This document shows, piece by piece, positions 5,417 through 9,873 of a stretch of 42,798 nt of DNA. A program made the translations under genes and the position numbers. The stretch is from an uncultured Actinomycetes bacterium (GTDB lineage: Bacteria > Actinomycetota > Actinomycetes > Nanopelagicales > Nanopelagicaceae), in NCBI GenBank assembly GCA_903933585.1, contig CAIZKO010000057.1, forward strand, positions 1 to 42,798, read 5' to 3'. The notes under the pieces were generated by a model that ran no database searches, was not told the DNA's origin, and saw nothing but the letters and a program-made list of their open reading frames with translations. The first letter of the stretch is position 1; every line of letters begins with the position of its first letter.

Positions 5417-5448
5417 AAAAGGCTCGCCGTTATCGCGGCGAGCCTTTT
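5417..5448 (+). terminator. Rho-independent terminator of nrdRJ
   Basis: A 13-bp perfect stem (5417-5429 with 5436-5448, core GGCTCGCCG/CGGCGAGCC) closes a 6-base loop TTATCG and ends in TTTT. The A-run on the 5' side makes it work in both directions. It also forms the left end of a repeated element seen again at 9689. Confidence 0.93.
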
Positions 5449-5502
5449 GAATTTCCCACCCTTCTTCTCTCCTGGCTGGATGTAACCAGCGCAGTGGAAG
5501 TG
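5421..5502 (+). repeat. Terminator-containing repeat, copy A
   Basis: An 82-bp element made of the nrdJ terminator hairpin plus about 55 bp of downstream sequence with a pyrimidine run and a second hairpin (GCTGG/CCAGC around ATGTAA). It recurs at 9689-9767 with four substitutions and two indels. The match continues well past the terminator, so it is more than two similar stems. The sequence is not protein coding. From 5503 to 5624 nothing recognisable was found. Confidence 0.75.
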
Positions 5503-5624
5503 TTTGATGAGAAAACCCCTCATGAGTCCCGCTTTTTTATTTGTAAGAGATGTCACGCGGATCAAATTCAGGCGTATTTTAGAAGCAATTTCTACCTCGC
5601 GCGTTAGAAGAGTGGTAGCACCAG

Positions 5625-5694: not shown

Positions 5695-6135
5695 ATGTCA
5701 ACCACGAGGAAATTGCAAAGATTAGATTACATAACGGCGTTGCTCGGGGCGATGATCTTGGTTGTTTTTTGGCTGGTCGTAGCTACATTCCCGAGTTTCT
5801 TCTTCTTCAATCCGCTGGGGGCGTCAAATGTCCTGCGCCGATTTGAGTTAGTAATTTCAACTGTGGGATGGTTCGGAATATCAACGTTGGTCCCATTGCT
5901 TCTCTTTTTGATTGCTTCAGGCAAAAGTAAGATGAGGATTTACCTTCCATACGCCGCACTTGTATACCCAATCAGTTTGATTGTTTCTCAAATAACGGTT
6001 TATGTTCAAACTGGTTCCACCTACACTGCGTATTTAAAGAATTTTCCAATCTTTATTTTTACCGATTTACTTCTGCCCGTATTGGTGATGTTTATTTGGC
6101 ATGATCTGAAGGAACGACCAACCGTCGGAGTGTAG
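5695..6135 (+). CDS. Small four-helix membrane protein of unknown function
   Basis: I do not recognise this 146-residue protein. Hydropathy by eye gives four membrane spans, about residues 13-36, 49-69, 80-99 and 111-131, with short loops and positive charge at the N-terminus and after span 2 (GKSKMR). The ATG at 5695 is preferred over an in-frame TTG at 5689 because the ribosome binding site AAGGGAG (5681-5687) is correctly spaced only for the ATG. The collagen-like gene starts 5 bp after its stop, so the two are almost certainly one operon. A role in display or anchoring of that secreted protein is possible but is only context. The gene is richer in A+T than the housekeeping neighbours. Confidence 0.75.
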   Translation: MSTTRKLQRLDYITALLGAMILVVFWLVVATFPSFFFFNPLGASNVLRRFELVISTVGWFGISTLVPLLLFLIASGKSKMRIYLPYAALVYPISLIVSQITVYVQTGSTYTAYLKNFPIFIFTDLLLPVLVMFIWHDLKERPTVGV

Positions 6136-6140
6136 TCATC

Positions 6141-8045
6141 ATGTTCCCAATTCGAAGTAGGACCAGAGGATTTGGTTTTATAGGTATTGTTTTCTTTTTT
6201 TTGGTTTCTCTAACCATCTTCCAGTCTCTCTCATCATCCGGAGCTTCAGCGCTCATGTTGCACTCATATAAATCTACTGGAGCAACTAGGACGATAGTGA
6301 TCCCAAAGAAAGGCGATTCATCTACGAAGGTGATTGGCCCACTTGGTGTTGGCGTCACAATCAATTCAACGGGGGCAACTGGAACAACAGGTGCTCCAGG
6401 AGCGGCGGGATCAACTGGAACAACGGGGGCAACTGGAACAACAGGTGCTCCAGGAGCAGCAGGATCAACGGGTTCAACGGGAGTTAGCGGAGCCAATGGA
6501 ATTCAAGGCGATACTGGAATCCAAGGGATTCAAGGTTTTGTTGGACCGCAAGGGCCAACGGGATTAATAGGTGCCACAGGTTCAACGGGTGCCACAGGCG
6601 CAACGGGATCAACGGGTTCAACTGGAGATACGGGTTCTGCCGGAAAAACAGGTGCAACCGGAAGTGCTGGTGCAAAGGGTGATACGGGATCAACTGGCGC
6701 ACCCGGAGCGGTTGGCGGACAAGGTGACTCAGGTTTAGCAGGTGCAACGGGCGCACAAGGTGCAACTGGAGCAGCTGGCGCACAAGGAAGTACAGGTTCA
6801 ACTGGAAGTGCAGGTGCATCCGGAACAAAGGGTGATACAGGTTCAACTGGAAGTGCAGGCGCATCCGGAACAAAAGGCGACACAGGTTCAACCGGAACTG
6901 CGGGTTCAGCAGGTGCGACAGGTCTAGCCGGCGCAACAGGTGCGGCCGGAATTAAAGGAGATGTCGGTGCAATCGGACCGCAAGGCCCACTTGGCAATCA
7001 AGGTGCAACAGGTGCGCAAGGTGAAGCAGGTACCGTCGGTGCATCCGGAACAAAAGGTGACACAGGTTCTGCAGGAGCAACCGGAACAAAGGGTGATGCA
7101 GGAACAGCAGGATCAACAGGTGCAGCCGGCGTTAACGGTGCTAAAGGTGATGTTGGTGCAATCGGACCGCAAGGTCCACTTGGCAATCAAGGCGCTACTG
7201 GCGCAACCGGAAGTGCTGGTGCAAAGGGTGACACTGGTGCTCAAGGCAGTGCTGGTTCAACCGGAAGTGCAGGCGCATCCGGAACAAAAGGAGATACAGG
7301 TTTAACTGGAGCACAGGGTTCACAAGGCGACGCAGGAACAGCCGGCGCTACCGGAATAAAAGGTGACACAGGTTCAACGGGATCAGCAGGTGCAGCCGGC
7401 GTTAACGGTGCCAAGGGAGATGTTGGTGCCATCGGACCACAAGGTCCACTTGGCAATCAAGGCGCAACAGGTGCGCAAGGTAGTACAGGTTCAACTGGAA
7501 GTGCAGGAGCAACTGGAACAAAGGGTGATGCAGGAACAGCAGGAGCAACAGGTGCGCAAGGTAGTACAGGTTCAACTGGAAGTGCAGGAGCAACTGGAAC
7601 AAAGGGTGATGCAGGAACAGCAGGAGCAACAGGTGCAGCCGGCGTTAATGGTGCTAAGGGAGATATCGGTGCAATCGGACCGCAAGGTCCACTTGGCAAT
7701 CAAGGCGCTATTGGCGCAGCCGGAAGTGTTGGTGCAAAAGGCGACGCTGGTGCAACAGGAGCTGCTGGTGCAAAAGGTGACACTGGTTCAACTGGGGTTA
7801 AAGGAGATACTGGTGCCATCGGACCGCAAGGTTCTCAAGGTATTCAGGGTATTCAAGGACCCGTTGGCCCTCAAGGTCCGACAGGAGCCACCGGCGCTGC
7901 AGGTGCTCCCGCAAGTTCAGTGACTCAGATCATTTGCGTACAAATCAAAGGCAAAGATGCAAACAACCAAATGCATTGGGGGACGTGTGCGAGCTCAGGC
8001 ATTAATAGCAATGACGGTGTTGAATACACGATATTGATTCATTAA
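6141..8045 (+). CDS. Secreted collagen-like (Gly-X-Y repeat) protein
   Basis: A 634-residue protein with three parts. Residues 1-38 form a signal peptide or N-terminal anchor (basic MFPIRSRTRG, hydrophobic core FIGIVFFFLVSLTIF, then SGASA). Residues about 39-77 are a non-repetitive linker. Residues 78 to about 590 are some 171 uninterrupted Gly-X-Y triplets, rich in GAT, GST, GDT, GAQ and GPQ. A 43-residue C-terminal cap has two Cys (ICVQ and GTCA) and could act as a trimerisation domain. Such repeats normally fold as a collagen triple helix; bacterial ones use Thr, Gln and charged residues instead of hydroxyproline. A module containing GAIGPQGPLGNQGA recurs four times and a shortened form a fifth. 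It probably forms a cell-surface filament or adhesin; partner and role are unknown. Confidence 0.9.
   Translation: MFPIRSRTRGFGFIGIVFFFLVSLTIFQSLSSSGASALMLHSYKSTGATRTIVIPKKGDSSTKVIGPLGVGVTINSTGATGTTGAPGAAGSTGTTGATGTTGAPGAAGSTGSTGVSGANGIQGDTGIQGIQGFVGPQGPTGLIGATGSTGATGATGSTGSTGDTGSAGKTGATGSAGAKGDTGSTGAPGAVGGQGDSGLAGATGAQGATGAAGAQGSTGSTGSAGASGTKGDTGSTGSAGASGTKGDTGSTGTAGSAGATGLAGATGAAGIKGDVGAIGPQGPLGNQGATGAQGEAGTVGASGTKGDTGSAGATGTKGDAGTAGSTGAAGVNGAKGDVGAIGPQGPLGNQGATGATGSAGAKGDTGAQGSAGSTGSAGASGTKGDTGLTGAQGSQGDAGTAGATGIKGDTGSTGSAGAAGVNGAKGDVGAIGPQGPLGNQGATGAQGSTGSTGSAGATGTKGDAGTAGATGAQGSTGSTGSAGATGTKGDAGTAGATGAAGVNGAKGDIGAIGPQGPLGNQGAIGAAGSVGAKGDAGATGAAGAKGDTGSTGVKGDTGAIGPQGSQGIQGIQGPVGPQGPTGATGAAGAPASSVTQIICVQIKGKDANNQMHWGTCASSGINSNDGVEYTILIH
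6371..6478 (+). repeat. Imperfect 54-bp tandem duplication in the collagen gene
   Basis: Two adjacent 54-bp units (6371-6424 and 6425-6478) begin with the same GGGGGCAACTGGAACAACAG and encode Gly-X-Y triplets; a few substitutions distinguish them. The unit is a multiple of 9 bp, so repeat-number change keeps both reading frame and triplet register. Confidence 0.8.
6372..7913 (+). repeat. Gly-X-Y triplet repeat tract
   Basis: About 171 consecutive 9-bp codon triplets starting with GGN. Copies of the ATCGGACCGCAAGG module start near 6971, 7160, 7430, 7673 and 7817, at intervals of 189, 270, 243 and 144 bp, all multiples of 9. This is what repeated in-register unequal exchange would leave. The antisense strand is open over long stretches only because of this composition. 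Confidence 0.92.
7470..7631 (+). repeat. Perfect 81-bp tandem duplication in the collagen gene
   Basis: 7470-7550 and 7551-7631 are identical over 81 bp (nine Gly-X-Y triplets each). The older modules nearby have silent differences, so a perfect match marks a recent expansion, or gene conversion. It is also a place where an assembler could collapse or expand copies. Confidence 0.9.
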
Positions 8046-8076: not shown

Positions 8077-8129
8077 GCGTTACGAATGGGGTTCGCCGTG
8101 ATCGCGGCGGACCTTTCGTATTTGTACCC
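8077..8129 (+). repeat. Terminator-containing repeat, degenerate copy C
   Basis: The segment from GCGTTACG through the hairpin to the T-rich tail resembles 9677-9727 base for base at most positions, including the GTTACG and ATGGGG upstream of the stem. It lacks the downstream hairpin part seen in copies A and B. Confidence 0.5.
8090..8116 (+). terminator. Terminator of the collagen operon
   Basis: Stem GGTTCGCCG (8090-8098) pairs with CGGCGGACC (8105-8113) with one T-G wobble around TGATCG, followed by TTT. It lies 45 bp after the collagen stop codon and has the same design as the nrdJ terminator. Confidence 0.75.
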
Positions 8130-8147
8130 ATTGGGACAACAAAGCAA

Positions 8148-8192: not shown

Positions 8193-9458
8193 TTACTCAG
8201 CAGGATTGCCGACCATCTTTGCCAGTCCGTTAAAGACTCTGTAGCCAACTACTGCCACGAGAGTTCCGTTCACGATTCCAGTGAAGGTGTAGTTGCCATG
8301 TGTCCATGACATATCTGAAACACCGATAATCAGCGTTGCGGCTACAACCATCAGGTTCTGGGTGATCCCGAAATTAACCTTGCTCTCGATCCAGATCTTG
8401 GCACCGAGGACAGCGATCATTCCGTAAAGCACGAGACCAACGCCGCCCAATACTCCAACAGGAGTAAGGCTTAGGATGGCGCCGAACTTAGGGCAGAGTG
8501 AAAGCAATACCGCTCCCAAGGCCGCGATCCAGTAGGCAGCAGTTGAGTAAATTCTGCTTGCTGCCATGGTGCCAATGTTTTCGGCATAGGTTGTTGTACC
8601 TGAACCGCCACCGATACCCGCAAGCGTGGTGGAGAGACCGTCAGCGAAGAGCGCCTTGCCGACTTGATCATCCAGGTTCTTTCCGGTCATAACAGAGACA
8701 GCCTTGATGTGACCGACGTTCTCGGCCATCAGAACCAAGACAACTGGAAGGAAGAGAACCATTGCGCTCATCTTGAATGATGGGCTTGTGAAGTGTGGCA
8801 TTGCGAGCCACTTGGCAGCGGTGACGCTGGCCATCTTCACATCGCCGTGCATGATTCCAAAGAGGTACCCGACGACGACTCCGCCAAAGATCGAGATACG
8901 ACTAAAGAATCCCTTGGTAACCGCGCCAATGAGCATGACGGCTAGCAGGGTGACGATGGCAACGAGTGGTTGCTGGCTGAAGTTATTCTTCGCGGCACCA
9001 GCCAAGTTGAGACCAATGATCATGACGATCGATCCAGTTACTACTGGAGGCAATAGCCAGTTGATCCAATTGATTCCAAAGTAGTTAACGATCAGGCCGA
9101 CAATGGCTAGCAATACGCCAGTTGCGACAACGCCGCCGAGAGCTTGCGCCATTCCGCCCTTTGAAACCGCCGCTGCGATTGGGGCAAGGAAGGCGAAGGA
9201 GGATCCCAGGTAGCTAGGGAGTTTGTTCCGCGTAATAAGGAGGAAGAGCATCGTTCCGACGCCGGAGAAGAAGAGGGTTGTCGTTGGAGGCAGATGGGTC
9301 AGAATCGGGACTAAGAAGGTGGCGCCGAACATGGCGACGATGTGCTGGACACCGATACCAATCGTGCGGGGCCAAGTGAGTCTTTCTTCGGGCTGGACTA
9401 CTTCGCCTGCGCGGATAGATTTTCCATCCCCATGCAAGGTCCAAGAGAAAAGCGACAT
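8193..9458 (-). CDS. Uracil/xanthine permease, NCS2 (UraA) family
   Basis: Membrane transporter that imports a nucleobase, most likely uracil, with protons. The 421 residues contain 12-14 hydrophobic segments. Family signatures seen: QHIVAMFGATFLVP in TM1, the substrate-binding glutamates in LMAENVGHIKAV and TTTYAENIGTM, and GGVGLVLYGMIAVLGAKIW near TM11. The ENVGH and ENIG pair favours the uracil branch over xanthine or urate carriers. The start is set by GAAGGGAA about 5-8 bases before the ATG on the - strand. It converges on the collagen operon and has no pyrimidine gene beside it. It could be under pyrimidine control, but no recognisable attenuator was found in the 5' region. Confidence 0.92.
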   Translation of the reverse strand: MSLFSWTLHGDGKSIRAGEVVQPEERLTWPRTIGIGVQHIVAMFGATFLVPILTHLPPTTTLFFSGVGTMLFLLITRNKLPSYLGSSFAFLAPIAAAVSKGGMAQALGGVVATGVLLAIVGLIVNYFGINWINWLLPPVVTGSIVMIIGLNLAGAAKNNFSQQPLVAIVTLLAVMLIGAVTKGFFSRISIFGGVVVGYLFGIMHGDVKMASVTAAKWLAMPHFTSPSFKMSAMVLFLPVVLVLMAENVGHIKAVSVMTGKNLDDQVGKALFADGLSTTLAGIGGGSGTTTYAENIGTMAASRIYSTAAYWIAALGAVLLSLCPKFGAILSLTPVGVLGGVGLVLYGMIAVLGAKIWIESKVNFGITQNLMVVAATLIIGVSDMSWTHGNYTFTGIVNGTLVAVVGYRVFNGLAKMVGNPAE

Positions 9459-9594: not shown

Positions 9595-9622
9595 TTGACC
9601 CACGACTTGGATATGGTATTTT
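9595..9622 (+). promoter_or_regulatory. Candidate promoter of an orphan + strand transcript
   Basis: TTGACC (9595-9600), 16 bases, then TATTTT (9617-9622). It lies within the 427-bp gap (9459-9885) between two divergent genes and points toward the terminator at 9689, with no gene between them. Transcription would start near 9629. Confidence 0.4.
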
Positions 9623-9628
9623 TTTACA

Positions 9629-9717
9629 AGTGAACCGGGGCGCAAACCCCGATCCACTGCTTACTGGTAGTAAGTGTGTTACGTATGGGGCTCGTCGTTA
9701 TCGCGGCGAGCCTTTTT
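9629..9717 (+). ncRNA. Candidate small RNA ending in an orphan terminator
   Basis: About 90 nt with three successive stem-loops. The first is CGGGG/CCCCG around CGCAAA, with outer pairing AGTG/CACT. The second is CTTAC/GTAAG around TGGTA. The third is the terminator stem at 9689-9712, followed by TTTTT. No open reading frame of note lies here on the + strand, and the preceding + strand gene ends 1.6 kb upstream behind two terminators. A terminator in this place needs its own transcript. I cannot assign it to a known RNA family; it lacks the C-rich loops of 6C RNA. The 9459-9594 part of the gap holds only the permease leader. Confidence 0.4.
9689..9717 (+). terminator. Orphan rho-independent terminator
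   Basis: Stem GGCTCGTCG (9689-9697) with CGGCGAGCC (9704-9712), one T-G wobble, loop TTATCG, tail TTTTT. It has the same loop and right arm as the nrdJ terminator. It follows no annotated + strand gene. Confidence 0.88.
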
Positions 9718-9767
9718 GAATTTCCCTTCTTCTCTCCTGACTGGATGTGACCAGCGCAGGGGAAGTG
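9689..9767 (+). repeat. Terminator-containing repeat, copy B
   Basis: A 79-bp element matching copy A (5421-5502) with four substitutions, a 4-base deletion in the pyrimidine run and one extra T. The same orientation makes A and B direct repeats enclosing 4.2 kb. The second hairpin is kept as CTGG/CCAG around ATGTGA. From 9768 to 9873 nothing recognisable was found. Confidence 0.75.
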
Positions 9768-9873
9768 CTCGAAAAGAAGGGGTGTAAGGCTTAGTAATCT
9801 AGGAATTCCACGCTCCTAAGTTGTGGCAATTGCTGTGAGGTGTGGACAGCCCAAGACTGTGAGCGCGCACCGC

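What the first reader, a model, noticed from the sequence alone, without database searches (positions are those of the whole stretch)
6141..8045. Long uninterrupted bacterial collagen gene with signs of recent expansion
About 171 Gly-X-Y triplets with no break, a signal sequence and a Cys-containing cap. An identical 81-bp tandem duplication (7470-7631), an older 54-bp duplication and module spacings all multiples of 9 bp show ongoing length change. For a streamlined free-living bacterium this is a large investment in one surface protein. Length may vary between strains and alter filament reach or adhesion.
Basis: partly seen in the sequence, partly recalled or inferred. Interest (0 to 1): 0.65.

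Follow-up and report, generated by a model that had tools for sequence, protein, structure and literature searches.

The report
Long bacterial collagen with membrane-protein partner
A small-genome actinobacterium carries a gene for an unusually long, unbroken collagen-like rod, capped by a small two-cysteine domain and paired with a four-helix membrane protein, a two-gene unit that recurs in seven related genomes with collagen parts about two- to six-fold shorter.

Summary
ORF 6141-8045 (634 aa) has 171 unbroken Gly-X-Y triplets (6372-7910), a signal-like N-terminus, a perfect 81-bp tandem duplication (7470-7550/7551-7631), an older 54-bp one, and repeat offsets all multiples of 9 bp. A single MAG cannot show strain variation. 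Relatives add four things. (1) The gene is the second of a tight pair: a 146-aa four-helix membrane protein (5695-6135) precedes it by 5 bp. All seven close homologs of that protein (window included), in at least five contexts, sit directly upstream of a collagen gene. Complete ones elsewhere have 29, 34, 36 and 83 triplets, so 171 is an outlier. (2) The 44-aa cap is a recurring domain: all 14 intact cases end collagen proteins, with invariant Cys, Gly, Cys; AlphaFold gives a three-stranded fold (pLDDT 89.7). (3) All 17 Lys(Y) precede Asp (Lys-Gly-Asp; chance about 2), and Gly never changes between repeat copies: selection for a triple helix. (4) The pair lies in an insertion between nrdJ and dinG bounded by copies of the dinG leader. 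Most likely: a secreted, membrane-associated trimeric stalk about 147 nm long. Length polymorphism in bacterial collagens is known; the pairing and the cap are the newer parts.

The parts
5421..5513 (.). left copy of a direct repeat (86% over 94 columns to 9689-9778) bounding the inserted segment; begins with a terminator-like hairpin
5695..6135 (+). tm148: 146-aa predicted four-helix membrane protein, first gene of the pair
   Evidence: AF2 pLDDT 76.7, four long helices; no Pfam, NCBIfam or PHROG family; seven close homologs, all upstream of collagen genes
6141..8045 (+). collagen-like protein, 634 aa, second gene of the pair
6141..6251 (+). signal-like N-terminus; likely cleavage after ASA (residue 37)
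   Evidence: read from the sequence; no signal-peptide predictor was available
6252..6371 (+). short non-collagen N-terminal stub with IGPxG motif, alignable to the other cassette collagens
6372..7910 (+). 171 uninterrupted Gly-X-Y triplets; 17 of 17 Lys(Y) in Lys-Gly-Asp
6367..6474 (+). two 54-bp tandem copies (6367-6420, 6421-6474), 5 differences
6966..7709 (+). four copies of module GAIGPQGPLGNQGA at 6966, 7155, 7425, 7668 (42 bp each)
7470..7631 (+). two identical 81-bp tandem copies (7470-7550, 7551-7631)
7911..8042 (+). 44-aa C-terminal cap with two conserved Cys (residues 9 and 26 of the cap)
8079..8143 (.). middle partial copy of the dinG-leader element, 88% over 65 bp to the G025 nrdJ-dinG junction; probable terminator of the pair
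8193..9458 (-). xanthine/uracil permease (PF00860), also inside the inserted segment, convergent with the collagen gene
9689..9778 (.). right copy of the direct repeat, in the native dinG leader

Best explanation
The two genes at 5695-8045 are one functional unit. The collagen gene makes a secreted protein that trimerises into an unbroken triple-helical rod of about 147 nm (513 residues at 0.286 nm each). The rod is registered and closed at its C-terminus by a small beta domain with a conserved cysteine pair, and is stabilised without much proline by Lys-Gly-Asp inter-chain salt bridges. The four-helix membrane protein made just before it most likely holds or exports the N-terminal end, so that the rod stands off the cell as a stalk or adhesive fibre. 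Rod length is set by in-register tandem duplication, and this genome carries a greatly expanded version. Shown: the ORF, the repeat structure, the conserved pairing with tm148, the cap family, Gly and KGD conservation, and the insertion context. Inferred: trimerisation, disulfide, surface location, anchoring by tm148, adhesive role.
For: 171/171 Gly kept although the third base of Gly codons is diverse (GGT 74, GGA 63, GGC 29, GGG 5); among repeat copies Gly codons show 3 synonymous and 0 non-synonymous changes, Y-position codons 6 and 6. 17/17 Lys(Y) followed by Asp, shuffle mean 2.1, maximum 8 in 20,000; KGE and KGD pairs raise the Tm of host-guest collagen peptides by 15.4 and 17.5 C (PMC7824840). 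tm148: seven strong homologs, the window's own included, among 296 family genomes (E below 1e-60), all seven directly upstream of a collagen ORF, overlapping or within 14 bp, in at least five contexts. Cap profile: 15 hits at E <= 2e-5; all 14 with an intact frame (window included) are C-termini of collagen-like proteins, invariant C..G.C, AF2 pLDDT 89.7 with three strands.
Against: No structure or biochemistry. tm148 has no known family or fold match, so anchoring is a guess from gene order. In G017 the same partner precedes a collagen with a different C-terminal domain, so the cap is not obligatory. Two distant tm148 homologs (G130, G423) have no collagen beside them. Low Pro content (0.11 per triplet) could mean a weak helix. 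The 44-residue AF2 model was made as a monomer.
Confidence: 0.6

Rival explanations
1. The collagen is a released, matrix-like or decoy product; the membrane protein does something else (transport, sensing) and is only co-regulated.
For: No LPXTG, SLH or lipobox anchor seen in the sequence; tm148 has distant homologs without collagen neighbours.
Against: Pairing is 7 of 7 in close homologs across at least five contexts, with overlap or a few bases between the genes.
Confidence: 0.22
2. Repeat number is partly an assembly artefact of a short-read MAG; the true array is shorter or longer.
For: The window genome is a 135-contig MAG; collagen ORFs in relatives often stop at contig ends (7 of about 30 loci flagged; L127 and L144 also end inside their collagen).
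Against: The longest exact repeat is about 92 bp, short enough for common assembly k-mers; most modules differ by several bases and assemble uniquely; frame and triplet register are perfect; no further fragment of this array was found on other contigs.
Confidence: 0.12
3. It is a phage-derived tail-fibre gene or prophage remnant.
For: PHROG tail-fibre profiles match the GXY region; isolated phages of Nanopelagicales carry collagen-like proteins in a variable island (PMC10202952).
Against: PHROG matches are to the repeat only; the cap has no PHROG or phage-record relative and tm148 no PHROG, phage-record or viral-contig relative; signal-like N-terminus; no phage family among the nearest neighbours examined.
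Confidence: 0.06

Closest known systems
Lcl, Legionella collagen-like adhesin (NF046116)
   Same: signal sequence, repetitive collagen part expanded by in-register tandem repeats, C-terminal non-collagen domain; Lcl repeat number is polymorphic and correlates with binding and biofilm (PMC6460258)
   Different: 268.7 bits against an equivalog cut-off of 500; cap only 44 aa with two Cys; membrane-protein partner gene
Streptococcal Scl1/Scl2 (NF038330, NF038329)
   Same: long bacterial collagen rod on a secreted protein
   Different: below cut-offs of 400 and 325; no LPXTG; different N-terminal part
Burkholderia Bucl proteins
   Same: conserved non-collagen parts flanking a length-variable collagen region; Bucl3 varies from 38 to 63 repeats between strains (PMC4565658)
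   Different: domains are different; compared only through the paper, no alignment made
Other collagen-like proteins of the same bacterial family
   Same: same genomes, secreted, Thr/Ala-rich GXY
   Different: most have a large (over 120 aa) C-terminal head, an N-terminal ILSGKGAP...GDFYID domain, and at most 73 unbroken triplets

Membership tests
Collagen-like proteins (Pfam PF01391) | tandem Gly-X-Y matching the Pfam collagen profile | tested here: met
   E 1.2e-78, 5 stretches
Collagen-like proteins (Pfam PF01391) | forms a triple helix | not testable with these tools
   needs CD or EM
Lcl adhesin (NF046116) | whole-protein score at or above the equivalog cut-off | tested here: not met
   268.7 bits, cut-off 500
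Scl1/Scl2 (NF038330/NF038329) | whole-protein score at or above cut-off; LPXTG anchor | tested here: not met
   238.5/400 and 237.2/325 bits; no LPXTG in the sequence
Phage tail fibre | phage-type non-repeat domains or phage gene context | tested here: not met
   only the repeat matches PHROGs; cap and tm148 do not
Two-gene cassette defined here (tm148 + secreted collagen) | tm148 homolog directly upstream of a secreted GXY protein | tested here: met
   7 of 7 close homologs, window included
Two-gene cassette defined here (tm148 + secreted collagen) | two-Cys C-terminal cap on the collagen | tested here: inconclusive
   present in window, G163, G242, G069; replaced by another head in G017; contig ends hide it in G171 and G107

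The most novel reading that the evidence does not exclude
A previously undescribed two-gene surface-fibre system of small-genome actinobacteria: a four-helix membrane protein dedicated to exporting or anchoring a collagen stalk, with exchangeable C-terminal heads and a rod length that evolves several-fold by in-register duplication and moves between genomes by recombination at intergenic repeats.
Probability: 0.35. Interest if true: 0.65.

Novelty: new variant of a known kind. Interest (0 to 1): 0.45.

Why it matters
How tiny free-living bacteria with streamlined genomes build surface structures is poorly known. A compact two-gene unit with a minimal trimer cap and a long, proline-poor, KGD-stabilised collagen rod would give a testable model for their attachment, phage interaction or cell-cell contact, and a small natural capping domain for collagen design.

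Tried and rejected
Phage origin: no relative of the cap, tm148 or whole protein in phage records (one search is uninformative because low-complexity filtering probably masks GXY), none for tm148 in viral contigs; the cap alignment is too variable for a viral-contig scan. Fold searches for tm148 and cap gave no match at E <= 0.001. Cap against PDB sequences: none. A single-sequence cap search found only weak hits, so a profile was used. Multiples of 9 bp as proof of recent change: rejected, since selection for register gives the same. Rfam on the dinG leader: none.

Full report
Check of the observation. The ORF at 6141-8045 encodes 634 aa with 171 consecutive Gly-X-Y triplets at 6372-7910, preceded by a signal-like N-terminus and followed by a 44-aa tail with two cysteines. 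Pfam Collagen matches at 1.2e-78. The 81-bp copies are identical, with about 92 bp of shared sequence; the 54-bp copies differ at five positions; all internal repeat offsets are multiples of nine. The block GAIGPQGPLGNQGA occurs four times, 189, 270 and 243 bp apart; the last gap would be 162 bp without the 81-bp duplication. So the array grew by nested duplication, the 81-bp step probably being the latest. Multiples of nine alone do not prove recent change.

Is it under selection? All 171 glycines are intact while their third codon base is diverse. Between repeat copies, Gly codons show only synonymous change (3 against 0), X codons 6 synonymous and 1 not, Y codons 6 and 6; the numbers are small. 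All 17 lysines at Y are followed by Asp at the next X; shuffles give 2.1 on average and never more than 8. Repeat duplication inflates the count, but in the relatives G163 and G242 all 5 of 5 Lys also sit in KG[DE]. Lys-Gly-Asp is a known strong stabiliser of triple helices (PMC7824840).

Whose genome. The window is contig 57 of a 1.53-Mb, 135-contig assembly; the window has 52.7% G+C. Family members have roughly 0.7-2.2 Mb genomes. The three tm148 relatives in named records are two 'Actinomycetota bacterium' MAGs and one record named Bifidobacterium breve, which looks misnamed. Nanopelagicaceae (acI) is my inference, from genome size and from acI genomes of 1.35-1.55 Mb with 45.5-51.3% G+C (PMC5301498); it was not tested. 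40 of 60 relatives carry some match to the protein, but most have another architecture, and the longest unbroken run elsewhere is 73 triplets.

The partner gene. Five bases upstream lies a 146-aa membrane protein (5695-6135). A profile from four sequences found seven strong members, the window included, among 296 family genomes. All seven are followed at once by a collagen ORF: window 171 triplets; G017 83 in three runs with a different C-terminal domain; G163 29; G242 34; G069 36 in a single-contig genome; G171 at least 22 and G107 at least 16, both cut by contig ends. Surroundings differ (nrdJ/dinG; a short-chain dehydrogenase; leuS and a prenyltransferase-like gene; dnaE; a cupin/sugar locus; an ATPase-like gene). 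Two distant homologs, G130 and G423 (E 2e-34 and 7e-21), have no collagen beside them, so the membrane family is probably older than the pairing. Window and G017 share 95% of NrdJ but only about 54-62% of tm148, hardly more than with other genera; that points to separate acquisition or transfer rather than simple descent.

The cap. A profile of six caps found 15 hits at E <= 2e-5 in the family. Every hit with an intact frame is the C-terminus of a collagen-like protein, in at least three architectures: the tm148-linked type, a type with a fibre-stalk-like domain (RWKSLQLGPGTLYIQD...ALKFPDG) and short GXY, and large multidomain proteins. Fourteen aligned caps share an invariant Cys, Gly and Cys. 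AlphaFold gives three strands with pLDDT 89.7 and no known structural match. In 394 genomes spread over the class only three family members had it. Its role as a trimer-closing, disulfide-linked domain is inferred from position and conservation.

Location. In most relatives nrdR-nrdJ is followed directly, or after a short stretch, by dinG. The window has 4.5 kb between them: tm148, collagen and a permease. A 94-column repeat (86%) occurs at 5421-5513 and 9689-9778, with a third partial copy at 8079-8143. The hairpin and its flanks match the native dinG leader of G025, G017 and G020. The module was therefore inserted into the dinG leader, probably by homologous recombination that carried leader copies along; this mechanism is inferred.

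How it compares. Score tests put it below the curated cut-offs of Lcl and Scl. Repeat-number polymorphism and its effect on adhesion are established for Lcl (PMC6460258), and strain variation for Bucl3 (PMC4565658). So a bacterial collagen of changing length is a known kind of thing. What I found no description of, in the libraries and the few paper searches used here, is the membrane-protein pairing and the small cap. Strain-level variation, surface display and adhesion remain untested.

Noticed in passing
window 9614-9715: A stretch of about 100 nt upstream of dinG, ending in a terminator-like hairpin, is 85-87% identical in G017, G020 and G025 while its surroundings differ; candidate small RNA or attenuated leader, no Rfam match.
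   Followed up: partly
window 5421-5513, 8079-8143, 9689-9778: Copies of this leader bound both the collagen pair and the permease gene, as if two modules were inserted one after the other at the same site.
   Followed up: partly
L120 700-7257; L105 3998-5314; L109 4744-5578: The nrdJ-dinG gap is a variable spot in the genus: a sugar-transport-like cluster in G020, an AAA ATPase in G011, small genes in G018, G012 and G016.
   Followed up: partly
L192 3759-5505; L193 4019-5720; L194 1616-3317: Cap-bearing collagens of the stalk type are overlapped upstream by another small one-helix protein (with a YWAGP motif), a second recurring collagen-membrane gene pair; a protein with a similar motif follows the collagens in L198 and L199.
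   Followed up: no
L006, L007, L009-L011, L013, L017-L019: A genus-wide collagen family with an N-terminal NTILSGKGAPS.LG..GDFYID domain and a C-terminal head of 120 or more residues; often at contig ends, so probably under-assembled.
   Followed up: no
L191 near 5787: G111 has a strong cap match in a frame of only 60 residues without GXY, likely a decayed or broken collagen gene.
   Followed up: no
L127: Public record named Bifidobacterium breve HRS-ES3-bin-76 looks misnamed: a contig of the same 3349-bp length with tm148 at the same coordinates is held as G171, a member of the window's family.
   Followed up: partly
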